Part shown: in pieces, positions 14,515 through 46,243 of the stretch | Position numbering within the stretch: the stretch's first letter is position 1 | How the letters are laid out: each line of letters begins with the position of its first letter | IMG/VR virus record: IMGVR_UViG_3300037258_000145 | Span: 23,684 to 87,683 of that record | Source of the DNA: a virus | Direction: 5' to 3' (one strand) | Length of the DNA: 64,000 bases | Position numbers and translations under genes: made by a program | Notes under the pieces: generated by a model | Told to the model about the DNA's origin: nothing | Seen by the model: only the letters and a program-made list of their open reading frames with translations | Database searches by the model: none

Positions 14515-17367
14515 TCAGTCGTCAGAGACCATGGCGATAGCGAACTGCTCGGGAGTCAGTTCTTCCATGGCCTGAGCGATCGCGGGTCCCGCGATCTGCG
14601 AATTGGGGGAATGGATGCCGCTTTTCAGCCGCTTGATCTTGGCGTGGACCTCGGCCAGCTTTTTGCTGTCCACAAGGTCGGGAGTGGGCCGGAATGCCGT
14701 ACCGGTCTGGCGGGCCTTGCGGGCTCGGGGATCGGGTGCCCGAAGGGCGGTCCTCACCTCGGCCTTGAAGGCTTCGAGCTCGGCCCTGGTTATCGTCACC
14801 GTGTCACCTTTCTGGCTCTTGTTCGCCTTTGCCTTGCGGGCCTTACCTTGGTCCGCACCCTTCTCGGGTGCCTTTGGGCCTTTGGCCTTGGCCGCGCCTG
14901 CGGTAGAGGCGGGAGTCAATCTGCCGTCATTGGTGCCTGCTGGTTTCGGTAGGGGGACGGGCTTGGCCGTCGCTTGGTACATGGCGTCTGGTTGGCCCAT
15001 GACGTCGTCGGGGGTGACATCGTTCGGATAGATGCCACCGTCTTTGTCGGCACTGTCGTGCATGGGGCAGATGCCGGGGAAGTTGCGGGCGATGTGGTCG
15101 TGCAGCATGGCCGCTACGTCGCCGTCGCCCTTGTCGCTGTTCTTGTAGAACACCCGCGCCGACGTCGGCGGGGCCAGCTCGGCGGCGGGCTTGTCCTTCT
15201 TGCCCTTCCGGGAGCCTTTCTTGCTCTTGGGCAGGCTGGCAGCCGAGACGCCGGGAGTGGGAGACGGACGAGCTTCGTTCGGGATCTGGCTAGTCCGGTT
15301 GAAGTCGGATGGCCCGAAGGTCGGGGCCATGCCCGGTGTGGGGATAGCGAACCCACCCGTCGGGGTGTCAGAGGTCGCACCGGACAGGAACGGGCGCTTG
15401 AACTGGTCAGGCGAGTTGAGCGTGAACCCCGTACCGGTCATGGTCGGGTACGCCGCTTCCATCGCCTTGTGAGCCGCCGTGCGCAGCCGTTCAAAGGTCG
15501 GGGTCGCCATCTGGCTGAGCTTGGTGGCCGCGGCCAACGAGTCGTAGGCGCGGGTGACGTCGCTCTCGCGTCCCTTGTCCTTGGCCATCTGGTAAGCGGT
15601 GGCGAAGTAAGAGGGGTCGATCGACTTGAGGGCTGACTCGGCGTCCACGGCGTAGACGGGGCACAGGGCATCGTGAGCGGCCAGGGCAGGCAGAGGAACG
15701 TGGCGGGACTTGTTGGCTCGCTTGGCTTTCTTCTTGTCCTTCTTGGCCTTGCGCTTCATACACATCTTGCACTTGCCACACTTGCCGCTGTCGCAGTTGG
15801 CGGGCATGGCGTCGTCAGGATCACCGTCGTCTCCACTCGGGGGCGGGGCGTCGTCATCGGTAGCATCGGCGCTGTCAGCCGGGGGGGCGTCCTTGGCTGC
15901 CTTCGGGGCAACCGGAGGAGCTTCCTTGTTGGCGATGTTGTCCTCGTCGGCATCCTGCGCGTCGTCCAGCACCTCTACGGCGTCTTGGACGTTGTCGAGG
16001 GCGTCGTCCACGATGTCATCCCCCGCTGTGGGCGGGTGATCCTCGGTATCGGCGTCCTGGGCGTCAGAGACATCGCCGGTGGCGTCCATCAGTTCATCGA
16101 TAGCGTCAGACACGTCGTCGTCGGTATCAGGTACTCCGTCATCATTGGAGTCATCCTGCTTGGCCGCTACGGGCTTGGTCTTCTTGGCCTTTTTGAAATC
16201 CATCGGGACCTGGCCGGCGCCTTCGCAGTCAGGGCACTTGCGGTTGCCCATCATGATCGTGCCTGAGCCCTTGCAGGTGGGACATGCCTTGTTGCCCTCG
16301 GTCGGGTCCTTACCGTCGAGACCGCTGGCCGCGGCTGCCTTGGTGGACTTGGCCGTGCATGCCGGGCACTTGCCGCAATCGCCAGACTCGCAATCCTTCA
16401 TCTGCTTCCCTTTCTTGACGCCCCAGCTGTCCGGCAGCTCGGCTGTAAAGCTCGGGCCCTTACGCTTGCACAGGGCTATGAGCTTGGATTTGAACTCTTC
16501 GAAGGTGGTAGAGCCCTTGTACCGGCCCCATGAACTGACGGCATCAGAGACATCGGCCGGAGTGACGACAGGGAACTTGCCATCTCCCTCGTCAGGCAGT
16601 ACGAAGTCGGCCGGGTCGAGCTTGTCCCGGTCCACTCCTCCACCGACATCGGGGTCCATGTCCCGCTTGAAAGCGGCATACCAGTGCGCCGCGGCCAGTG
16701 TCTTTTCGGCTCGGTAGACCATGGCCCGCTTGAGCGCCCTGGTGATCCCGTCGCCTGTCTCGTCTGTTACCGGCACCTCGTCAATACGCGCGGCACCGCG
16801 CGCTTCTGGTTCGCTGGACAGTCCGAACAGGTCGGGGGCTTGGCCCTTCGCCTTGGACTTGGCCATGACGAAGCGAGGCACCTTGGTCTTTTCCTTGGTC
16901 CCGGACACGCCCTCGATGTGAGCGTTCGGGTTCGCCCCGGCGTCAACCAGCGACACCTCACGCGCCCAGCCTCCGACCATTCGGCCGTTGGGGGCTTCGG
17001 GGTCACGGACGTATTCAGGGTCGTACCAGCCAACCGAAAAGTCCTTGTAGACGCCATTGAGCACGTGCTGGACGGCAGTCGGCTCATAAACATGCGCCCG
17101 GATACTCGACCCGTCTTCGGGATCGACTTCCAGGGCTATGCCGTTGCCCGCGGGCGGATAATATTCGCAGTGCTGACCGAACACCGCAGCGCCACCTTGG
17201 TACCAGTCAGATAAGGCCTTGGCGGCAAAGTCAGCATCGACTATCTCGCCGTCTGAGTCCAGGGAATCGTCGGTCACCTTGCCCCAGACGATCACCGAAC
17301 CGTCGGGCTGTTCCTTGCGCTTGGTGATCGGATGATAGGTACGACGGAGCGCGGGCCTAGTAGCCAG
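14515..17367 (-). CDS. Prohead protease/scaffold polyprotein with DnaJ-like zinc fingers
   Basis: 950 residues from CTG 17367. Residues ~1-150 are a prohead serine protease: His in VFGQHCE and Ser in WAREVSLVDAGANP match the HK97/XkdF-type catalytic pattern. Residues ~220-320 match the DUF6582-like unit. Next come cysteine clusters (CESGDCGKCPAC; CPTCKGSG and CPDCEGAG, the CxxCxGxG repeat of DnaJ), long acidic Asp/Ala repeats, another Cys cluster, and a Lys-rich helical C-terminus typical of scaffold. Probably self-cleaving. Zinc fingers in a scaffold are unusual. Its start context is AAGGCGG-CAT-CTG. Confidence 0.75.
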   Translation of the reverse strand: MATRPALRRTYHPITKRKEQPDGSVIVWGKVTDDSLDSDGEIVDADFAAKALSDWYQGGAAVFGQHCEYYPPAGNGIALEVDPEDGSSIRAHVYEPTAVQHVLNGVYKDFSVGWYDPEYVRDPEAPNGRMVGGWAREVSLVDAGANPNAHIEGVSGTKEKTKVPRFVMAKSKAKGQAPDLFGLSSEPEARGAARIDEVPVTDETGDGITRALKRAMVYRAEKTLAAAHWYAAFKRDMDPDVGGGVDRDKLDPADFVLPDEGDGKFPVVTPADVSDAVSSWGRYKGSTTFEEFKSKLIALCKRKGPSFTAELPDSWGVKKGKQMKDCESGDCGKCPACTAKSTKAAAASGLDGKDPTEGNKACPTCKGSGTIMMGNRKCPDCEGAGQVPMDFKKAKKTKPVAAKQDDSNDDGVPDTDDDVSDAIDELMDATGDVSDAQDADTEDHPPTAGDDIVDDALDNVQDAVEVLDDAQDADEDNIANKEAPPVAPKAAKDAPPADSADATDDDAPPPSGDDGDPDDAMPANCDSGKCGKCKMCMKRKAKKDKKKAKRANKSRHVPLPALAAHDALCPVYAVDAESALKSIDPSYFATAYQMAKDKGRESDVTRAYDSLAAATKLSQMATPTFERLRTAAHKAMEAAYPTMTGTGFTLNSPDQFKRPFLSGATSDTPTGGFAIPTPGMAPTFGPSDFNRTSQIPNEARPSPTPGVSAASLPKSKKGSRKGKKDKPAAELAPPTSARVFYKNSDKGDGDVAAMLHDHIARNFPGICPMHDSADKDGGIYPNDVTPDDVMGQPDAMYQATAKPVPLPKPAGTNDGRLTPASTAGAAKAKGPKAPEKGADQGKARKAKANKSQKGDTVTITRAELEAFKAEVRTALRAPDPRARKARQTGTAFRPTPDLVDSKKLAEVHAKIKRLKSGIHSPNSQIAGPAIAQAMEELTPEQFAIAMVSDD

Positions 17368-25261: not shown

Positions 25262-25546
25262 ATGGACCGCAGTTTGAACATCCTCGCCAAGTCGATCCAC
25301 CGCGTCGCCAACAAGCGGGCACCGATGGTCCCAGCTACCCCGTTGTTTGGGACAGTGGTCAGCGTTCAGACGGGTTCAGGACCAACAACGATCTCGCTGG
25401 AGATAGGCAAGACGGGGTCGATCATCGTTGGCGTCGGGATTCTCGGCAACGGATCCGGATGGACGCCCTCACCTGGCGAGCAGGTCTATTACAACTCCAT
25501 CAGGAACGTACCGCTGGCACTGGGGCCGGCCGGCAATCCGGCTTAG
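25262..25546 (+). CDS. Possible OB-fold tail or spike-like protein
   Basis: 94 residues on the plus strand. Beta-rich, with GTVVSVQTGSGPTTISLEI, which is spaced like OB-fold baseplate/spike units or single-strand binders. Leaderless start. It is isolated from other plus-strand genes and ends 4 nt past the convergent XF1762-like gene stop. Function is uncertain. Confidence 0.55.
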   Translation: MDRSLNILAKSIHRVANKRAPMVPATPLFGTVVSVQTGSGPTTISLEIGKTGSIIVGVGILGNGSGWTPSPGEQVYYNSIRNVPLALGPAGNPA

Positions 25547-25998
25547 AGGTACTTCCCCCAGCGCTCCTTATCCTCAGCGCCGCGTCGTGAACCAAAGAGC
25601 GTGTCGTCTTGGCGCGGTCTGCTCTCGCATCCCCATGGCCGAGTAGGTACGTCGGACTCCTTCACGAAGCCAGCTGCCTTGAGGCTGACCCCAGGTTCGG
25701 AGACCAGCTTGTACGTGATCACATGCCGATAGCCAAGCGCCTTTGCGGCCCGAGTTAGGGCACCGTAAAGCATGGAGTTGGCCATAGGAGTGCCCAGCGT
25801 GCAAGTACGTGTGATCTCGACCGTCCGACCGTCCTGCGCCCCGCGGCCGACTGGTCTGCCCGCCACTCCTACTCCGACCAATTCATCGCCCTCGCTCAGC
25901 CCCACGCCAAAGAGCCAGCCGATCGGAGGTTCACTGTGGCGATGGTGCTCGGCAATGAAGATGCGCGCCTGACGAAGCGTGATCGGGATCAGGACCAC
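25543..25998 (-). CDS. XF1762/GNAT-like protein
   Basis: 151 residues. HHRHSEPPIGWLFGVGL, GRPVGRG, EITRTCTLG, ANSMLYGALTRAAKALGY and VSLKAAGF follow the XF1762 family, phage proteins related to GNAT acetyltransferases. The target is unknown. Starts GTG 25998, 6 nt after the collagen-like gene. Confidence 0.75.
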   Translation of the reverse strand: MVLIPITLRQARIFIAEHHRHSEPPIGWLFGVGLSEGDELVGVGVAGRPVGRGAQDGRTVEITRTCTLGTPMANSMLYGALTRAAKALGYRHVITYKLVSEPGVSLKAAGFVKESDVPTRPWGCESRPRQDDTLFGSRRGAEDKERWGKYL

Positions 25999-27239: not shown

Positions 27240-27245
27240 AGGTTA
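27240..27245 (-). promoter_or_regulatory. Leaderless -10 box (TAACCT)
   Basis: 8 nt ahead of GTG 27231; overlaps the stop codon of the HNH gene. Confidence 0.5.
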
Positions 27246-27794
27246 GCTGTTATCCTTCGTGCCCGGCAGCTCCTCACGGGCGTCTTCATGCGGTACTACA
27301 TGATTCCAACTCCGACCTTTCATGATGTGCACGATAGTGCTCGGCACCACGGCGAACAGAACAGCGATGTCCTTGACCATCACCCCGCTGGCCCGTAACC
27401 GCCGTACCTCCTCGACCTGTTCAGGCGTCAGTTTGGACCGACCTGGATTGGGACGGCCCTTGGCCATCCGGTCATGCACGTTGTCGGCGGCCGTGCCCAA
27501 GAACAGATGCGAGGGACGGACACAGAGCGTGTTGTCACAGTGGTGACAGACCTGGAGTCCTGTTGGAACCGGACCGTAAGCCCACTCCCACGACAGTCGA
27601 TGCGCCGAGAGTTTGTTGTCCGTAGACAACCCCGTAGACGACAACATGCCGTACGCAGGTCTGGGACGGGATCTCGTTTTGCGATGAGCCCCAGTCCATA
27701 CCCAGCACGGTCCGAGATGCAGCATGTGAGCGGGAATCGGGCCGTCCTTGTTGACCTTGACCCAAAAACGCTCGGCGAGAGTAGCCTTTGACAC
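27243..27794 (-). CDS. HNH homing endonuclease with portal-like C-terminal tail
   Basis: 183 residues from GTG 27794, with GGAGG 7 nt upstream. CWVWTGA, AHRLSWEWAYGPVPTGLQVCHHCDNTLCVRPSHLFLGTAADN is a standard HNH_3 unit, followed by KLTPEQVEEVRRLRASG and a HTH (IAVLFAVVPSTIVHIMKGRSW), typical for homing enzymes. The last ~19 residues (NHVVPHEDAREELPGTK then DNS) copy the portal C-terminus (NHDVPREDVREELPGTK) with nearly every codon changed. It stands directly after the portal gene. See the separate finding. Confidence 0.85.
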   Translation of the reverse strand: MSKATLAERFWVKVNKDGPIPAHMLHLGPCWVWTGAHRKTRSRPRPAYGMLSSTGLSTDNKLSAHRLSWEWAYGPVPTGLQVCHHCDNTLCVRPSHLFLGTAADNVHDRMAKGRPNPGRSKLTPEQVEEVRRLRASGVMVKDIAVLFAVVPSTIVHIMKGRSWNHVVPHEDAREELPGTKDNS

Positions 27795-27862
27795 CGTCAG
27801 TCCTCCTATCCAGGATTGTCCACGCCCGGGGCCGTACCAGCGGTGCCCGGGCAACCTCTATC

Positions 27863-30800
27863 TTACTTGGTACCAGGTAATTCTTCCCGCACATCCTCAC
27901 GTGGCACGTCGTGATTTTTTGTGTTGTACTGCATCTGGCGCACCTTCTGTGGCCAGTCTGCGTCTCCGCTGCCCGGGGTCCCCACCCAGGCAGCGGAGGT
28001 GGTGTGCCCTGCCTTTTGGAGCGCTTCGGTGCGGTAGTACCCGTCAGCGATGACCATCTTCGGCCCCGCGCCCGCCACTAAGACAATGGGCTTGGGCTGC
28101 TTGCCGCCCTTGATCTCTTCCACCTTTTCCTCGACACGGGCGGGGTCGCGCCCGCCGGGGCGGTGGGCCATTTCGATGTCGTCGAGGGCGACGGCGGGCT
28201 TTAGCTGCCACTCGCAACCCTTCACCCAGTCCAGGTCGACCTTGTCGTAGTGCTTGGCCAGGTACTTGTAGACGTGGTCAGCGGCATCGTCGTCGTCGTC
28301 GGCCTTACCGTAGGCGCCGGGCTTCACCTGTCCTTCAGGCCAGGGAGCGGGCGCTTTGGTAGCGGTGTAGCCGGGAGGGAGGCGGCGGTTCAGGAGGGAT
28401 TCGAACGACTCCTCGTCGGACTTCAGCGCCGGCGCGGCCAGGGTGTGCATGATCTGAGGCAAGCTCGCCATCATTTCGGGACGTAGTGGGAGCTGAGCCA
28501 GGTGGTTGGGGTCGAACCACGCCACGGCCTCGAAGCTGTCGCCGTCGGGATTGTTCACCTCGCGCCATTCGCCCTGGTTGACATCCACGCTCGCCTCATG
28601 GGCTGTCTCGACCACGAAGCCCTGATAGATGCCGCTCGTCCAGGAGCCGAGCCACTTGGCGTCTGCCGGTAGGAAGGTCCCTACCTCTTCGCCCCATTCC
28701 CTCGCCGCGCCTTGCTCGGGTGATTCGCCCGCCTCAAGATGTCCCCCTGGCAATTCCCACATGCCGGCGCAGGGGTCAGAGGGGTCGTTGGCCCGCTGGA
28801 GCAGTAGGACTCGCCCGGAGTCGAAGGCACGGAGCAAAGCGCCAGCACAGGTGACCTGAGGCGTGGCTGTGGTCATCGCTGGGCCTTCGGAATCGGGGCC
28901 CTGTGCCTTGGCGGCGTTGGCTTCGTCGAGGCGTTGCTGGCCCCACTGCTTGGGGTGCTTGGCTGGCTTCTTGCCGCACTGGAGGCAGCGCACTCCTGAG
29001 CCGACGTAGGCATGGCGTTGGGTGCGCTCGGCGACGTTGTTCGGTGCTACCTGGCCCGGTTCGGGGCCTGAGAGGTCGAAGGGGACAAAGCCAGTGTCCA
29101 GGGGTGCTCCGACGCTGATGTCCTTGGGAGTCGCGCGCGTGCGACTTTTGCTCATCCATGCGGGATCGGTGCCCTGCGTGGTCTGGCGGGCGATCGAGGG
29201 GCTTTGGGTCTGAGCTAGGACCGAGTCGCCCTGCTCATAACTGAGCGAGCAGGCGCAGGCGGGCCCTCCGAGGCACAGGGTATCTTGGCCGTAGTCCCCG
29301 TCTCCAGGGAATCCGGGCAGATCAGCGGGGCTAAACGTCTGGCCGTCGAGAGCCAGGCAGTTCTCACAATTTTCGGCGTCACCGAGGGTCCAGCGGATCA
29401 CACTGTTGGTGCCATCGGCATCCGGCGCCGCGGCGATGTAGCCCTGCTCGTACGGCGCCGTGAGCCCATCGGCGTAAGATTGGACCCTGGTAGCGGTCGA
29501 CTGCGCCCCGCTCGGTGCGTTGACCGCGCCTGCGACAACTCCACCGACTACGTCGAGAGCTAGGTCCTTCAGGTACGGCATCATGCTCATGGCCCGGGTT
29601 TGAGCTAGGGCGGGGGCACTCTCGGGACTGGGTGGGCTGGCAGCGTCCCCCCAGTCACCAGCCCCGCTACCGGCACCAGCGGTATATGCGTCCTGGTATG
29701 CCTGAGCCAGGATGGGGATGGCGGCCGGCGCGAACTGGGCGGGCTTTAGCTTGTGATCGGTGAGCTTGTGCACCAGGGCGGTCAGACCGGCCATCAGGGA
29801 GGCTCTGGGCTTGGCCAGAGCGGTCTCCCGGTGGTCTAGCCGTCTCTGGGCCTTAGCGGCCTTCAGGGCGGCCGTGGCGGGGTCCTGCTCGCCTTTGGCG
29901 GCCTTCAGGGCGGCAGGGCGCAGTGCTCGGGGCTCGAAGCTCTCCAGCGACTTGCCGCGGGCCAGATAGCGGCGCAGGGCGCGCAGTTCGTTTGCCTTCT
30001 CTTTTTGGCTGGCCGATTCGTGCGGCTCGGCATCTCCCGCCGCCGTCAGGCCTTGGTCGGCGGTGCTCTTGTCGGGTTCAGGAGCATTGCCGTTGGCGGG
30101 CGGTTTGGGTAGAGCAGGAGGCTTGTTGCCGGGCTTAGGCGGCGCTGGCGGCTTGCTAGCGCCGCCCTCAGGTGGCAAGGGTCGGGAGTTGGCGTCGATC
30201 GGGGCCGGACCTGAGCCGGGCGGAGGGGGCGGAGTTTGGCCCATGGGGATAACGCCGGTCGGGAGGAATTGGAGCGGCACCATCGACCAAGGCTCGTTGT
30301 AGGTCTTCAGGTCCAACGCGATGCACGCTTCGTCGATCGAGGTGAGAGACGCCTTGACGAGTGCAACTTGGTCGGTGATGCGGTCCGACAAGGTCTCGCC
30401 CTGGTCCATGACTCCCCAGGACCACGCCATGTCCGTCTGGCCGAACTTGCCCCGGATCAGGGGATCGAACAGGCCCGTTTTCAGCTTCTTGGCCAGGGGG
30501 ATGGCACTGCGGCGCGTCGTCTGGTCGGCGGCTTGGGTGGCGGCGTTCTTGGAGGCCGCCGGGCTCATCATCGAAGAGAGCTTGGGGGTGATGCCGAGGT
30601 CGCTGATCGACAAGCCGAACGGCATGGCGATGAGTGAGGTAAACCACGTGTCGATGTCGTCGGAGAGGTCGGCCGGCTTTTGGGGACTGACTTTTGCTCC
30701 AGGCGGTGTGACAATGACTTGATGCATGTTGGCGAGGTCGCCACCGAGTTGGTTGATCGCCTGCATGAGCTGGCGGGCTTCCTCGGGCGTAGCGATCGAC

Positions 30801-31900
30801 TCGCCGGGGTCCATGAAAACCGCCGGCAGCGACCCGTTTCGGAACCACTCACTTTGCCAAGTCTGACGGGCCAGCATCAGCGATATGGCCATGATGCCCT
30901 GTTCTGTTGGCCCCATGCCGTAAGGCGTCCAAGTCCTCGGGTTGGACTTGAAGTAGATCATCTCCGACCCGATCCACTCCTCACCCGTGGTGGTCAATTG
31001 GTCTAGCAAGGGGTTTAGCGCCTTGTAATCCTCGATCGTGGCGTCAGGACCGAGGTTGATGATGTCCATGAGGTCGACGCGGGGCACGCCCCAAAGCACC
31101 TGTTGATAGGCCACGGCTGGCTGCTTGGGTCGGGTCCCCCACTCGTCCATCAGGGGCTTTATCAAACTGGCATCTTGTAGGCACAGAGCACCCACGCTTG
31201 AGCCAGCCGGACCGTTCCCCTTCCCACCCGCTGGCTGGAGATAGATGGCCACAGCATCCAGTACAAGATTGTCTTCGAAGAGGGCATTGAGCCAGAGATC
31301 GCCTGAGTCGTACTGGTCAGGGTCAGGGTTCGCAAAGAACTCCATCAGCTCGCCCTTGCGACTCTCCCAGTCGGCTTTCTTGGAGGGATTTCCCTGCATC
31401 CCTGCTTGAGCGGCGGGCGTCGGGACTATGTCGTAGTCGGCGACGATAAGGTCCGCTTTTCTTATTTCTATGCACGTCCGACCAATAGCGGGTATTTCGG
31501 CTAAATCGCGCAGCTGAGCGAAGTTTGCGAGCTTAATTCCTTCGGTGCCGGGCTGGCCGATCGGCAAATTCCAACCGACCATCGGCTGAAGTCGCCTCGG
31601 GCGGGGCCGTCCGTTCGGCTCCTCCGGTATGTCGATGGGCACCGGCAGGATCGGTGACAGCGGGGAGAAGTCGCCGCTCGTGAACGTCTGCATGGGGCGC
31701 GGCAGCCCCAGCAATCCCTCGTATGCCTGACTGGCCCAGCCCGCGGCCTGGCCTGGCAGTTGGTACATGTTCGCCCGAGGACTATTGGGCTGGATGCCGT
31801 TGGCCCCGACGTCACCAGGACGAGCAGAATTGATAACGGCCCTAGCCAAGGGGTTCACGAGCCGAGCTTTCGTGTCGAGGTGGAGTTCAGATGTCCCCAA
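27863..31900 (-). CDS. Portal protein fused to MuF-like, NUDIX and ParB-like domains
   Basis: About 1345 residues from TTG 31900; a GTG at 31858 (14 codons in) overlaps a short CTG-led frame and may be the true start. Residues ~20-560 are portal (IGSEMIYFKSNPRTW, TPYGMGPTEQG, PFGLSISDLGI). Residues ~700-900 are MuF-like head morphogenesis (LGDAENCENCLALDG). Residues ~1016-1150 hold a complete NUDIX box (GHLEAGESPEQGAAREWGEE, then VG) at ~1053-1075. Residues ~1236-1325 are ParB/sulfiredoxin-like (KPIVLV...MVIADGYYRTEAL). Domain order is portal, MuF, NUDIX, ParB. The last two on a portal are very unusual. Confidence 0.85.
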   Translation of the reverse strand: MGTSELHLDTKARLVNPLARAVINSARPGDVGANGIQPNSPRANMYQLPGQAAGWASQAYEGLLGLPRPMQTFTSGDFSPLSPILPVPIDIPEEPNGRPRPRRLQPMVGWNLPIGQPGTEGIKLANFAQLRDLAEIPAIGRTCIEIRKADLIVADYDIVPTPAAQAGMQGNPSKKADWESRKGELMEFFANPDPDQYDSGDLWLNALFEDNLVLDAVAIYLQPAGGKGNGPAGSSVGALCLQDASLIKPLMDEWGTRPKQPAVAYQQVLWGVPRVDLMDIINLGPDATIEDYKALNPLLDQLTTTGEEWIGSEMIYFKSNPRTWTPYGMGPTEQGIMAISLMLARQTWQSEWFRNGSLPAVFMDPGESIATPEEARQLMQAINQLGGDLANMHQVIVTPPGAKVSPQKPADLSDDIDTWFTSLIAMPFGLSISDLGITPKLSSMMSPAASKNAATQAADQTTRRSAIPLAKKLKTGLFDPLIRGKFGQTDMAWSWGVMDQGETLSDRITDQVALVKASLTSIDEACIALDLKTYNEPWSMVPLQFLPTGVIPMGQTPPPPPGSGPAPIDANSRPLPPEGGASKPPAPPKPGNKPPALPKPPANGNAPEPDKSTADQGLTAAGDAEPHESASQKEKANELRALRRYLARGKSLESFEPRALRPAALKAAKGEQDPATAALKAAKAQRRLDHRETALAKPRASLMAGLTALVHKLTDHKLKPAQFAPAAIPILAQAYQDAYTAGAGSGAGDWGDAASPPSPESAPALAQTRAMSMMPYLKDLALDVVGGVVAGAVNAPSGAQSTATRVQSYADGLTAPYEQGYIAAAPDADGTNSVIRWTLGDAENCENCLALDGQTFSPADLPGFPGDGDYGQDTLCLGGPACACSLSYEQGDSVLAQTQSPSIARQTTQGTDPAWMSKSRTRATPKDISVGAPLDTGFVPFDLSGPEPGQVAPNNVAERTQRHAYVGSGVRCLQCGKKPAKHPKQWGQQRLDEANAAKAQGPDSEGPAMTTATPQVTCAGALLRAFDSGRVLLLQRANDPSDPCAGMWELPGGHLEAGESPEQGAAREWGEEVGTFLPADAKWLGSWTSGIYQGFVVETAHEASVDVNQGEWREVNNPDGDSFEAVAWFDPNHLAQLPLRPEMMASLPQIMHTLAAPALKSDEESFESLLNRRLPPGYTATKAPAPWPEGQVKPGAYGKADDDDDAADHVYKYLAKHYDKVDLDWVKGCEWQLKPAVALDDIEMAHRPGGRDPARVEEKVEEIKGGKQPKPIVLVAGAGPKMVIADGYYRTEALQKAGHTTSAAWVGTPGSGDADWPQKVRQMQYNTKNHDVPREDVREELPGTK
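29128..29146. repeat. 19-bp palindromic repeat, copy b
   Basis: Identical to the copies at 17604 and 50869. Encodes S-R-T-R-A-T in the portal fusion, in the inter-domain region between MuF and NUDIX. Confidence 0.75.
31855..31890 (-). CDS. Possible 11-codon CTG leader before the portal
   Basis: CAT-CTG at 31890 after GGGGA opens 11 codons to TGA 31857-31855, overlapping GTG 31858 (GTGA). The SD-like GGGGA is weak. A coupled start would be consistent with the other CTG sites. Confidence 0.3.
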   Translation of the reverse strand: MNSTSTRKLGS

Positions 31901-34268: not shown

Positions 34269-36125
34269 CTAACGCCCTGGAAAACCGGACGGGGGCTGTC
34301 CTTGCGCTTTGCGTTCTTCGTCGGTCGGAGGTGCGTACACGCTGGCCCATCCACCTGTTGAGCGAGGTTTGGGCTTGGGTACCAGGACGGGAGGCGCGCC
34401 GTAGACCTGCATCTCTTCGGCCTTGGCCTTCAGTGATTCGGTCAGGTCTTCGCACTCGGCGGCGAGCTTGCCGCAACTGCACCGACCGGCGCCTAGGAGG
34501 TAGGCATCCTGGTAGTGCTGAGGCTTTTCGCCGCGCTCCTCGGCTGCTACGCCGGCGTAGAAGTCAGCCCAACTCATGCCGCCCGCGGCCGCCCAATATG
34601 CTTGAACCACCGCGTCGCCATCATCAGGTGACCGGCCGAGTCGTTTCTTGATGTCGTCCTTGGACTCTATCTGGATCCGGGCTCCGCTGATCTCTCGTTT
34701 GCGAGCTGCCACCAAATCGCCGGTCAGGCGATCGTCGGGGGGTAGAGCCATGTCAAGCTCAGCCGAGGGATCCAACATCTCGCGCAACGACCACCATGCA
34801 GCGGCCCGGACATTGAGCGCCGAAATTTCCCCAGTCGCATCACGCCATTTGGTTGCGCCGCTGCCGTGGAATGCCACGCAGGGCTTACCGATCACCCGGA
34901 GATGGTCGTAGACGCCCGAACCGATGCCATCGGCGTCTACGACCGCCTTGGGGTCGCCGTGGGCTTCCTGGATGGCAGCTACCTTGTCAGCCAGAATCTC
35001 GAGGTTGTCCGTATAGGCGTCTCGGCGCAACTCGATGATCGCATTACCCTGTCTCAGGGCGAAGACGCTCTTATCACCGCCGGCCCGGGCGACGTCGACA
35101 CCGATCACGTGGAGGACTTCGCTGTGACCGAGCACGCGCGCCGTACCAAGAGCAGGGTCGATCTTCGCTCCGTTGCCGCCCAGACGTGAGCCGTAAAGCT
35201 CCAACCAACGGGCATTGGCTGCTTCCACCCATGACAGCGGGATCACCCCGTCGGCGTCGACGGATGCGAACTCGCCGAGGGCCCGGTTCTTGAATAGGGC
35301 GCTGTCCTCGCCCCACAACCGTCCAACCTGATCGACCCATTCCTGAGTAACCCGGCCAGCGGCGATAGCGTCCGACAGGGTGACCTGACGCGTCCACCAG
35401 TTCTCAGTACCGGGCTTGTGGCTCTGGATGTCGTAGAACCGGCCCACGGGCTCGCCAGGGGTTGAGACGGCCAGGGCGTAGGCGTTAGTTCCCGACTTCT
35501 TGCCACCGGTCGAAAAAGCGCCCTCGGCCGAGTCAAAGAAGGCGTCGGGGATACTGCGGGCCTCGTCGAACACGTACAGCAACTCATCGGCGTGGGCGCC
35601 TTCCAGCGCGCTCGGGTCACCGACGGCCATGGCAAAGGCCAGACCGGTGCGAAGTTGGATCGACAGCTTGAGCAGTTCGGCATTCATCTTGAACGGCTCC
35701 CGGCCCACCTTGTCCCAACGCACCCGGCGCGTCCACTTGTGGATCTCAGGCCACAGGTAGTGGATCAACTGGCCCCATACGCTGGCCGTCGTCGGTACTT
35801 TCCAGTCCGCTCCGATGGCGTCGCGGGTCACCGAGAACCACAGGATCGTCAAAGCCGCGATCGTGCTCTTGCCTGAACCATGCAACGAGCGCACACACAC
35901 CCTTCGCTCGTCGGCCAGATGCCCGAGAATGTCCTCCTGGTACGGAGCTAGACCGCCACCCTCAGGCCAGGAAATGCAGTCGTGACACCAACCCACGGGA
36001 TCATTGAGGTAACGCTCTTGCTTGGCTCTCTCGGCGCTTCGGATGCGGCCCGCCGCGGCTAGAGCGCGCTTGCGAAGCTCGGGAGGTAGGACGGTTAGGT
36101 CTAGCGGGACAGCCTTAGTGGGCAG
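34269..36125 (-). CDS. terL: Terminase large subunit, CTG start
   Basis: 618 residues from CTG 36125; the next in-frame start (GTG 35996) would lose 43 residues that read as a normal terminase N-terminus (VLPPELRKRALAAAGRIRSA). Walker A (GSGKS) at residues ~83-87 and Walker B with DEA (YVFDEA) at ~185-190 form the packaging ATPase; C-terminal HVIGVDVARAGGD and DADGIGSGVYDHL are the RNase-H-like nuclease with Asp residues. Packages phage DNA into proheads. Start context is ACCATCTG, with a weak GGA upstream. Confidence 0.9.
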   Translation of the reverse strand: MPTKAVPLDLTVLPPELRKRALAAAGRIRSAERAKQERYLNDPVGWCHDCISWPEGGGLAPYQEDILGHLADERRVCVRSLHGSGKSTIAALTILWFSVTRDAIGADWKVPTTASVWGQLIHYLWPEIHKWTRRVRWDKVGREPFKMNAELLKLSIQLRTGLAFAMAVGDPSALEGAHADELLYVFDEARSIPDAFFDSAEGAFSTGGKKSGTNAYALAVSTPGEPVGRFYDIQSHKPGTENWWTRQVTLSDAIAAGRVTQEWVDQVGRLWGEDSALFKNRALGEFASVDADGVIPLSWVEAANARWLELYGSRLGGNGAKIDPALGTARVLGHSEVLHVIGVDVARAGGDKSVFALRQGNAIIELRRDAYTDNLEILADKVAAIQEAHGDPKAVVDADGIGSGVYDHLRVIGKPCVAFHGSGATKWRDATGEISALNVRAAAWWSLREMLDPSAELDMALPPDDRLTGDLVAARKREISGARIQIESKDDIKKRLGRSPDDGDAVVQAYWAAAGGMSWADFYAGVAAEERGEKPQHYQDAYLLGAGRCSCGKLAAECEDLTESLKAKAEEMQVYGAPPVLVPKPKPRSTGGWASVYAPPTDEERKAQGQPPSGFPGR

Positions 36126-44939: not shown

Positions 44940-45086
44940 CTAGAACGACGTCGGGGTGGCGTCTGGATCGATCAGCCTAATTGGGTAGTGCCGCTCCACG
45001 GCGAGTATGACCTCGGCGCCGCTCAAGGCTCGGCACAGGTGTTGGGCGGGGACTGACTCATGGCAGAAGTGACAGGGGGTGGTCAT
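44940..45086 (-). CDS. 48-residue zinc protein, leaderless
   Basis: ATG 45086 lies 7 nt after TAACGT and overlaps the dcm stop (ATGA). CHFCHE then HLC may bind one zinc. Short MTT-cassette gene; stop is followed by the SD of the next gene. Confidence 0.55.
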   Translation of the reverse strand: MTTPCHFCHESVPAQHLCRALSGAEVILAVERHYPIRLIDPDATPTSF

Positions 45087-46243
45087 GAAACGGACGTTAG
45101 CAGATCAAGCCGAGCGCGCAGTTCGTGAATGGCGACCGCAGCCTGCAACCAGACAACCGAGTTACCCGCGAGCCGCTTCTTAGCGCTGTTGGAAACGCCG
45201 TCCAACCAGCCCTCAGGAAGGAACTGCATCCACGCTGAGAAGTCCCCATTGAGCGATCGGCCGATGGTGGGAGCCGGCCAAGGACGGCCTAGAACAGCGG
45301 CATGTCGTCGGAGGGCGGGCCCGTAGTCTCGGATAGTTCCGTCAGGCATTCGAGCGAGAAAAGACCCGTCACGTCCGTCAGGTCGTGAGCCATCGTCCGG
45401 TGTCCTCCCCTGCGCCCGCGTCCCTTCTCGTCGTGGGCTGTCGGTGTTGGCAGGAGCGCTGTCACAATCGCTGGCAGGGAGACCCCCCCTCCCTCTTGGC
45501 AGCATCCTTCGGCCCCGGTCCCGTCCGAGGCCGTCGGCGTCGGGAGCAGTGACAAGCCGCGGGCCGCTTCGGTCAGCGTCGTCCCCGCTTTCGGTCTGTC
45601 GGGTCTGTCCGCTTGTCCCGCCGAGCTCTTCGCATCCCCCGCCGTTGGAGTGGGCAGCAGACAGCCCGTCAGGAGAACCTGCAACGAAGTCACCACCGTG
45701 TGTTGGCTGCCGTCTATCCGGTTCTTCTTGTGCAGGTGCATCTCCGGTGTCCCCGCCGCGTCCTGCGCCACTGGAGTGGGCAACAATGAAGAACCGGTCT
45801 CGCTGGTGGCAGGCTCCAATGTCGGCTGCGCCGAGAACCCTCCAAGATCCCACGTACCCGAGCTGGGCAAGCTGATAGAGGGTGGCTCCAAGGAAAGGAG
45901 CGAACCCTGTGGGATTCTCAAAGACCAGCCATCGAGGTCGCAATCTTCCCACCGCATCGAGTACGTCGGGCCAGAGGAAGCGGTCATCGTCGGGTCCCTT
46001 TCTAAGGCCGGCTTGGCTAACAGGTTGGCACGGCGGGCCACCGCACAGAATGTCGACCGGCTCGACCGTCGACCAGTCCACCGTCTTGATGTCACCCAGG
46101 TTCGGTACACCGGGGTAGTGACGGGCCAGCACCTTGCAGGCGTCTTTGTCCACCTCGCACTGCCACGCCGGCAGGGCGCCGAAAACAGCCTCCACGGCTC
46201 GGTCGAGACCGGCGACTCCGGTGCATATCGAGCCATAGTTCAC
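45083..46243 (-). CDS. dcm: DNA cytosine-5 methyltransferase (Dcm type)
   Basis: 386 residues. FxGxG-like N-terminus (YGSICTGVAGLD), catalytic PPCQ with Cys72, ENPTG (motif VI), QRDRFFIVA (motif VIII) and C-terminal KKRLAGNSVVWLQAA (motif X). A disordered Gly/Asp/Arg-rich region of ~100 residues separates motifs VIII and X. Probably methylates phage DNA against host restriction. GTG 46243 overlaps the upstream stop (TAGTG). Confidence 0.9.
   Translation of the reverse strand: MNYGSICTGVAGLDRAVEAVFGALPAWQCEVDKDACKVLARHYPGVPNLGDIKTVDWSTVEPVDILCGGPPCQPVSQAGLRKGPDDDRFLWPDVLDAVGRLRPRWLVFENPTGFAPFLGATLYQLAQLGYVGSWRVLGAADIGACHQRDRFFIVAHSSGAGRGGDTGDAPAQEEPDRRQPTHGGDFVAGSPDGLSAAHSNGGGCEELGGTSGQTRQTESGDDADRSGPRLVTAPDADGLGRDRGRRMLPRGRGGLPASDCDSAPANTDSPRREGTRAQGRTPDDGSRPDGRDGSFLARMPDGTIRDYGPALRRHAAVLGRPWPAPTIGRSLNGDFSAWMQFLPEGWLDGVSNSAKKRLAGNSVVWLQAAVAIHELRARLDLLTSVS
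45094..45099 (-). promoter_or_regulatory. Leaderless -10 box (TAACGT)
   Basis: Inside the 3' end of dcm; 7 nt ahead of ATG 45086. Confidence 0.5.

What the first reader, a model, noticed from the sequence alone, without database searches (positions are those of the whole stretch)
27863..31900. Portal protein carrying MuF-like, NUDIX and ParB-like domains in one chain
The ~1345-residue frame reads without break from portal through MuF, a full NUDIX box (GHLEAGESPEQGAAREWGEE, then VG) and a ParB/sulfiredoxin-like domain. Portal-MuF fusions are known, but a NUDIX hydrolase and ParB-like domain attached to a packaging/ejection protein are not something I know of. The enzyme domains could be delivered into the cell or act at the portal vertex.
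Basis: partly seen in the sequence, partly recalled or inferred. Interest (0 to 1): 0.85.

Follow-up and report, generated by a model that had tools for sequence, protein, structure and literature searches.

The report
Phage portal carrying two enzyme-like domains
The ring protein through which this phage's DNA enters and leaves its head carries, on the same chain, two nucleotide-handling domains that related viruses also carry in swapped order or on a neighbouring gene, which suggests cargo that may travel into the host with the DNA.

Summary
One unbroken 1345-residue frame (27863-31900, minus strand) reads portal, a divergent MuF-like domain, an intact Nudix domain and a C-terminal ParB/sulfiredoxin-fold domain. 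Pfam and PHROGs miss the last one, but its predicted fold (pLDDT 88) matches ParB and sulfiredoxin (Z 12.3, 11.6). It is no assembly fusion: 13 other ORFs from 12 IMG/VR contigs, about 9 lineages, hold portal, Nudix and ParB-like domains in one frame, some with the last two swapped; others carry them on the next gene. 'Not known' is only partly right: portal-MuF fusions and Nudix fused to portal, MuF and capsid protease are in print (PMC7302621, PMC9503650), and phages Sonali, Mufasa8 and BcepNY3 have portal-Nudix chains. I found no report of a ParB/Srx domain on a portal. Best reading: virion-packaged 'polyvalent' cargo on the portal's lumenal C-terminus, ejected with DNA to act on nucleotides; localisation and activity are inferred. 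Caution: this copy alone among 49 lacks a conserved histidine (DGHHR becomes DGYYR), so its ParB-like domain may bind nucleotide without turnover.

The parts
27863..31900 (-). whole ORF, 1345 aa: portal - MuF-like - NUDIX - ParB/Srx-like; start codon uncertain (TTG 31900 is the first possible start)
30326..31678 (-). portal core, residues 75-525
   Evidence: phrog_2662 1.1e-30; clade HMM seeded with the window itself, 6e-129
30026..30244 (-). Pro-rich linker, residues about 553-625
   Evidence: read from the translation
29186..29830 (-). divergent MuF-like domain, residues 691-905 (core 727-892, CxxC...CxC)
   Evidence: no PF04233 hit; hhalign to C-terminal regions of nine portal-NUDIX relatives E 9.8e-6, prob 82.5
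28931..29005 (-). short Cys/His motif (VRCLQCGKKPAKHP), possible zinc site
   Evidence: sequence only
28457..28849 (-). NUDIX domain, residues 1018-1148; Nudix box 1053-1075 at 28676-28744
   Evidence: Pfam 1.2e-19; model pLDDT 89.2; VIA Z 17.6 to RenU
27905..28309 (-). ParB/sulfiredoxin-fold domain, residues 1198-1332; P-motif DGYYR 1286-1290 at 28031-28045
27243..27854 (-). HNH endonuclease gene 8 bases after the portal stop (first possible start), shares a C-terminal tail with the portal
   Evidence: phrog_1872 7.5e-25; tail alignment
34269..35996 (-). terminase large subunit, upstream, places the ORF in the packaging module
   Evidence: phrog_2 5.6e-27

Best explanation
It is a portal protein whose C-terminal half is cargo. 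Shown: the chain is one open frame with portal, MuF-like, Nudix and ParB/Srx-fold domains, and relatives swap the last two or carry one or both on another gene nearby. Inferred: the C-terminal side of a portal ring faces the capsid lumen (general knowledge of portal structure), so up to 12 copies of the MuF-NUDIX-ParB arm would sit inside the head, perhaps be cut free, and leave with the DNA. In the new host the Nudix domain would hydrolyse an NDP-X nucleotide (ADP-ribose/NADH/FAD class is the best guess) and the ParB/Srx domain would bind an NTP, together blunting a nucleotide-based defence or stress signal early in infection. In this particular virus the ParB-like domain is probably a binder or a weakened enzyme.
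For: Portal, Nudix and ParB-like domains share one ORF in 13 other ORFs from 12 contigs, about 9 lineages after near-duplicates. Both orders occur, NUDIX-ParB and ParB-NUDIX. Domain presence on the portal ORF changes at least 7 (ParB) and 8 (NUDIX) times on a quick portal tree of 70 rows, 66 of them counted. When not fused, the domain can sit on the gene next to the portal: in L107, L149 and L154 the ORFs overlap by 4 bases, in L145 they are 2 bases apart (first possible starts). Two very distant Nudix lineages, both with intact boxes, occur in this portal clade. Other portal or ParB-bearing ORFs carry ADP-ribosyltransferase, Arr-type and 2'-5' RNA ligase-like domains; ARTs and 2H domains are among the injected effectors proposed in PMC5512222 and PMC9503650 (passages). 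Nearest Nudix structure is RenU (Z 17.6, next 13.7), which cleaves ADP-ribose, FAD and NADH (PMC4401782, passages).
Against: No virion proteomics or activity data. By sequence profile the Nudix is nearest to MutT-type enzymes, and RenU is not among the 26 hits at E 1e-8. The window's ParB-like copy is the only one of 49 without His at alignment position 92 (Y1289) and one of two without His at 124 (R1321). The MuF-like HMM fires in only 4 of the 13 other three-domain ORFs (L061 and its duplicate L117, L134, L136), all with the order ParB-NUDIX, so the window's exact four-domain order was recognised in no other ORF. 30 of 58 ParB-like ORFs carry neither this clade's portal nor NUDIX nor the MuF-like HMM. 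A large arm on all 12 subunits may be sterically costly; no PF04586 capsid protease was found in the record (other protease families were not sought there), so release is unexplained.
Confidence: 0.55

Rival explanations
1. The arm works in the cell that makes the phage: late-expressed, partly unassembled or protease-released chains degrade nucleotide signals made during late infection, and fusion to the portal only secures expression level and timing.
For: In several relatives the domain is on an adjacent or nearby gene rather than fused, as expected if co-expression is what matters; a free Nudix gene follows the head morphogenesis gene in phage Bm1.
Against: Fusion to head-module proteins recurs in different frames: portal (30 of 36 Nudix ORFs), MuF (23 of 36) and XkdF-type protease (2 of 36), and the gene annotated capsid maturation protease in Pam4, which expression alone would not need. 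The 36 were picked by Nudix or portal similarity.
Confidence: 0.22
2. The domains act at the portal vertex during assembly or packaging, as nucleotide sensors or structural plugs.
For: The ParB/Srx fold is an NTP-binding switch elsewhere (PMC12704722, abstract and passages); GxxR is kept in the window. Of the 7 rows in the window's 25-row portal group with neither domain on the portal ORF, 6 have one or both on another ORF of the fetched locus.
Against: L092, the nearest portal, has neither domain on the portal nor, by these HMMs, elsewhere in the 17,380 bases fetched; and fusion to the portal itself is not kept.
Confidence: 0.13
3. The domains are non-enzymatic decoration or decaying passengers.
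For: The window's ParB-like copy has lost two near-invariant histidines, close to a tail shared with an HNH endonuclease gene.
Against: Nudix RE..EE kept in the window; 66 of 82 Nudix domains match the full strict box and the 16 misses keep the RE..EE core; 48 of 49 ParB-like domains keep His92.
Confidence: 0.08
4. Assembly or annotation fusion of separate genes.
For: Separate-gene versions exist.
Against: The fused set is on 12 other contigs with 12 different IMG sample ids, and portal-NUDIX chains are in GenBank phages.
Confidence: 0.02

Closest known systems
Nudix fused to MuF, portal and capsid serine peptidase (Iyer, Burroughs, Anantharaman, Aravind 2022, PMC9503650; passages seen)
   Same: Nudix domain in the chain of a head protein, proposed to be packaged and injected
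   Different: That text speaks of T4 NudE-like Nudix (not tested here) and does not mention ParB (0 occurrences); here a ParB/Srx domain is on the same chain and the order is shuffled
Arthrobacter phages Sonali gp3 and Mufasa8 gp3
   Same: One gene with portal, the same Nudix subfamily (45-56% identical) and MuF
   Different: Order portal-NUDIX-MuF, about 1000 aa, no ParB-like domain found; Sonali's portal is only about 27% identical to the window's
Burkholderia phage BcepNY3 portal (Bcep781 and Bcep43 seen in the hit list only)
   Same: Nudix at the C-terminus of the portal (residues about 586-670 of 695 in BcepNY3)
   Different: Phage of a proteobacterium, head morphogenesis protein on the next gene, Nudix only about 36% identical
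Polyvalent proteins and DdrB-like ParB domains (PMC5512222; passages seen)
   Same: Several effector domains on a virion-linked chain; portal fusions to PBECR, 2H and inorganic pyrophosphatase; a ParB/Srx-superfamily domain
   Different: The 12 of 28 passages shown do not put the DdrB-like ParB on a portal; kinship of the two ParB-like families was not tested
Free serine kinases SerK and SbnI, sulfiredoxin, ParB/Noc CTPases
   Same: Fold; SerK shares the DGHHR segment with the family
   Different: Identity 11-24% over the aligned parts, no HTH family found, no ParA-binding motif; the window has DGYYR

Membership tests
Nudix hydrolases (PF00293) | profile match over curated cut-off | tested here: met
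   71.1 bits against 21.1
Nudix hydrolases (PF00293) | Nudix box GX5EX7REUXEEXGU | tested here: met
   GHLEAGESPEQGAAREWGEEVGT; last position T instead of a bulky hydrophobic
Nudix hydrolases (PF00293) | hydrolysis of NDP-X | not testable with these tools
   needs an enzyme assay
ParB/sulfiredoxin superfamily | fold | tested here: met
   model pLDDT 88.3; Z 12.3 ParB, 11.6 Srx
ParB/sulfiredoxin superfamily | GxxR phosphate motif | tested here: met
   G1287-Y-Y-R1290
The phage ParB/Srx-like family aligned here | second His of DGHHR | tested here: not met
   Y1289; 48 of 49 rows have His
Canonical ParB partition protein | HTH domain and ParA-binding motif | tested here: not met
   no HTH family up to E 1; motif as printed in PMC12704722 (passage) not found in the chain
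DdrB-like ParB | match to that family | tested here: inconclusive
   no Pfam match for P0002 up to E 1; that Pfam holds such a model is recalled
Tailed-phage portal | profile match | tested here: met
   phrog_2662 1.1e-30; Pfam PF04860 below its cut-off
MuF (PF04233) | profile match | tested here: inconclusive
   no direct hit up to E 10; hhalign E 9.8e-6 to C-terminal regions of nine portal-NUDIX relatives taken as MuF
Polyvalent, virion-injected effector | two or more effector-like domains on one virion-linked chain | tested here: met
   Nudix and ParB/Srx domains in a portal chain
Polyvalent, virion-injected effector | packaged and delivered | not testable with these tools
   needs virion proteomics and a translocation assay

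The most novel reading that the evidence does not exclude
In a broad clade of viruses the portal ring itself is a delivery platform: a shuffled Nudix plus ParB/Srx pair, with a Nudix recruited more than once, forms a two-enzyme nucleotide-processing module that is loaded in up to 12 copies per head and injected to dismantle a nucleotide signal, with the ParB/Srx part acting as an NTP-dependent kinase or phosphotransferase rather than a partition protein.
Probability: 0.22. Interest if true: 0.78.

Novelty: new variant of a known kind. Interest (0 to 1): 0.52.

Why it matters
If true, the portal, a part every tailed phage needs, doubles as a cargo carrier, and the repeated pairing of a Nudix with a ParB/Srx domain points to one substrate pathway that phages attack early. 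No ParB family of Pfam showed among the matches of the 45 ORFs scanned that bear this domain (E up to 0.001), and PHROGs missed the window copy, so surveys built on such models would probably miss it. Cultured phages with portal-Nudix chains (Sonali, Mufasa8, BcepNY3) make part of the question directly testable.

Tried and rejected
Scans of viral contigs with the whole protein or the C-terminal piece alone found no relative; alignments were needed. tblastn of the single C-terminal piece against phages found nothing at E 0.01. A genome-contig scan with the ParB-like alignment matched 588 stretches but confirmed none, so no host could be named. Library look-ups missed the ParB-like domain. A Tyr downstream of the Nudix box occurs in 60 of 84 parsed boxes; the rule that ties it to diadenosine polyphosphates is recalled and speaks against ADP-ribose, and I do not rely on it. 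Of the hits, ZL12 and BcepSauron were read and show no head gene in the stretch; Bcep43, Bcep781, XacN1, LR745208 and OP650936 were not opened. The NUDIX tree puts the window with the Sonali type while its portal groups with L092, which hints at module exchange, but support is 88 and long branches meet, so it is not claimed. The repeat finder found no repeat between portal and HNH ends at its settings; the shared tail was seen by alignment, whose score only equals the best of 500 shuffles. Left out of the portal tree: rows with under 300 matched residues, portal spans over 700 residues (possible inteins) and rows over 90% alike; four rows open at the 3' end were drawn but not counted.
Full report
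What is there. The minus-strand frame 27863-31900 is open for 1345 codons. It lies in a packaging module: terminase large subunit at 34269-35996, a 293-aa ORF without a PHROG match, then this chain, then an HNH endonuclease 8 bases after its stop. The window is part of an 87,683-base virus record, 61-64% G+C in 4-kb steps.

Portal. PHROG family 2662 (portal) covers residues 109-889 with E 1.1e-30. Pfam Phage_portal scores 34.1 bits, under its cut-off of 39.1. Of six portal relatives scanned, four pass that cut-off, L097 (35.2 bits) does not and L103 has no hit. I take the portal call as safe.

MuF. The region 691-905 has no Pfam MuF hit up to E 10; of seven such regions scanned only L140's has a weak one, 0.041. 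A family of eight such regions compared with the C-terminal regions of nine portal-NUDIX relatives gives E 9.8e-6 and probability 82.5, aligning the Cys pairs. Those nine are taken as MuF because 23 of 36 such chains hit PF04233 and Sonali's is annotated so; the nine regions themselves were not scanned. I call the window's region MuF-like and divergent.

Nudix. Pfam E 1.2e-19 over 1019-1142. The box is intact. The model has pLDDT 89.2. Against solved structures the best is RenU of M. smegmatis at Z 17.6 (rmsd 3.4, 135 aligned), the next at 13.7; RenU cleaves ADP-ribose, FAD and NADH (PMC4401782, abstract and passages). By sequence profile the nearest are MutT-type enzymes, and RenU is not among the 26 hits at E 1e-8. 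The substrate is therefore open, with ADP-ribose/NADH/FAD a guess.

ParB/Srx. No library hit. Four relatives were found by phmmer among fetched loci, their alignment with the window found 50 IMG/VR loci and 49 rows were aligned. The model has pLDDT 88.3. Foldseek: ParB-CDP 4.5e-5, human Srx 2.3e-4. VIA: ParB 7bnr Z 12.3, Srx 6ky4 Z 11.6, SerK 5x0b Z 10.3 at rmsd 6.6. Profile against PDB sequences: SerK 1.7e-4, SbnI 2.2e-4, Noc 2.1e-3. Against predicted viral proteins, most of the named top hits are ParB or sulfiredoxin proteins. The family motif is DGHHR. The window has DGYYR: Y1289 stands where 48 of 49 rows have His, and R1321 where 47 of 49 have His. GxxR, whose Arg was the negative-control site in NTP-binding tests of ParB-like proteins (PMC12704722, passages), is kept.

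Relatives. The Nudix alignment found 319 relatives in IMG/VR; the best 80 were kept. I scanned 36 complete ORFs, 34 from those loci and 2 (L103, L107) from the portal search: 36 of 36 Nudix, 30 of 36 Phage_portal, 23 of 36 Phage_Mu_F. So portal-NUDIX chains are common, though this set was selected by similarity. Over all fetched IMG/VR loci and the window (6776 ORFs of at least 80 aa, selected by three searches and with duplicates), 105 ORFs carry the Nudix HMM and 79 of them also the portal HMM; 58 carry the ParB-like HMM, 23 of them with portal and 19 with Nudix; 14 including the window carry all three. The other 13 come from 12 contigs; merging those over 80% identical leaves 9 lineages. 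The MuF-like HMM fires in 4 of these 13 (L061, its duplicate L117, L134, L136), all of the order ParB-NUDIX; the exact order of the window with a recognised MuF was seen only in the window.

Shuffling. Orders portal-NUDIX-ParB (window, L075, L131, L141, L148, L150, L151, L156-L158) and portal-MuF-ParB-NUDIX (L061/L117, L134, L136) both occur. Among the 50 loci found by the ParB-like domain alone, 18 have it in a portal ORF of this clade, 6 have such a portal as a separate ORF and 26 have none that this clade's HMM sees; 13 of 50 have a Nudix in the same ORF and 5 in another ORF. Pfam sees Phage_portal in 22 of the 45 ORFs scanned (45 of the 49 non-duplicate ORFs listed were given). In L107, L149 and L154 the next ORF with the ParB-like domain overlaps the portal ORF by 4 bases, and in L145 it starts 2 bases after it (first possible starts). 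On a quick portal tree of 70 rows (66 counted) the ParB state of the portal ORF changes at least 7 times and the Nudix state at least 8. In the window's 25-row group (support 94) the portal ORFs have both domains in 10, ParB only in 7, Nudix only in 1 and neither in 7; six of those seven (L094, L095, L107, L122, L149, L154) have one or both on another ORF of the fetched locus. The seventh, L092, is the window's nearest portal (44% identical); its MuF-like domain is on a separate gene.

Two Nudix lineages. The Nudix of L131, L145, L151, L156 and L158 is a distant lineage (branch 6.7, support 100) with intact boxes, and their portals lie together in the window's group (L156 there represented by its duplicate L157). 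So a Nudix was probably recruited at least twice in this portal clade; in four of these five it shares the chain with the ParB-like domain, and in L145 the ParB-like domain is on the next ORF.

Cargo company. L103 carries Nudix and an ADP-ribosyltransferase in one 2198-aa ORF whose start matches the portal HMM, L095 portal and an Arr-type domain. Of 45 ParB-bearing ORFs, 4 match 2'-5' RNA ligase-like, 1 ADP-ribosyltransferase and 1 HipA-like and PI-kinase-like. ARTs and 2H domains are among the virion-packaged effectors proposed in PMC5512222 and PMC9503650 (passages); the kinases are not in the passages I saw.

What is known. PMC9503650 (passages) says that T4 NudE-like Nudix are fused to MuF, portal and the capsid serine peptidase and might be packaged and injected. 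PMC7302621 (abstract and passages) reports portal-MuF fusions and MuF-VIP2 fusions in Microbacterium phages. PMC5576092 (passages) describes MuF toxins. PMC5512222 (passages) describes portal fusions to PBECR, 2H and pyrophosphatase and DdrB-like ParB in polyvalent proteins. PMC7824862 (passages) has Nudix in jumbo phages, not on portals in what I saw. In PMC12704722, the ParB-fold survey, portal, MuF and Nudix occur 0 times in the main text. My searches for a ParB-portal or ParB-MuF link and a Nudix-portal link in the held open-licence library returned no description of a ParB/Srx domain on a portal; papers outside that library were not searched, and several listed papers were not opened.

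Verdict. A real and recurrent multi-domain portal, a new variant of the polyvalent, head-linked effector theme. New here, as far as these searches go, are the ParB/Srx-fold family on portals, its pairing and shuffling with Nudix, and a second Nudix lineage in the same portal clade. Delivery and catalysis remain inferred, and the window's own ParB-like domain may be weakened.

Noticed in passing
27243-27310 and 27863-27930 (-): The HNH endonuclease and the portal end in nearly the same peptide (NHxVPxEDxREELPGTK); the DNA matches at 33 of 51 bases, with most differences at third positions. The HNH insertion may have replaced the end of the ParB-like domain.
   Followed up: partly
L100 5582-8452; several members of A5 and A8: Some portal genes of this clade seem to carry inteins: the L100 portal match is split by about 330 residues, and LAGLIDADG, Hint or intein-splicing families match a few chains.
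   Followed up: no
L103 5967-12563: One 2198-aa ORF with a portal HMM match, Nudix and an ADP-ribosyltransferase exoenzyme domain.
   Followed up: partly
L095 7755-12032: Portal ORF with an Arr-type (rifampin ADP-ribosyl transferase) domain at residues 694-800.
   Followed up: no
L120 3701-11671: 2657-aa ORF with the ParB-like domain plus HipA-like and PI3/PI4-kinase matches.
   Followed up: no
window 25543-25998 and 45083-46243 (-): Mom-like DNA modification protein and a C5 cytosine methylase: the phage may modify its DNA.
   Followed up: no
GenBank phages Gilgamesh gp52, Pam4_13, PdC23 pdc_04, QDWS_44: Nudix is also part of other large head-module genes: Gilgamesh gp52 (annotated hydrolase, start reads to me like a prohead protease), Pam4_13 (annotated capsid maturation protease), and genes two after the portal in PdC23 and QDWS.
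   Followed up: partly
window 14515-17295 (-): 926-aa ORF with weak PHROG hits to major head protein and head maturation protease families, a better one to a family of unknown function and none in Pfam; the capsid protein and protease of this phage were not identified.
   Followed up: no
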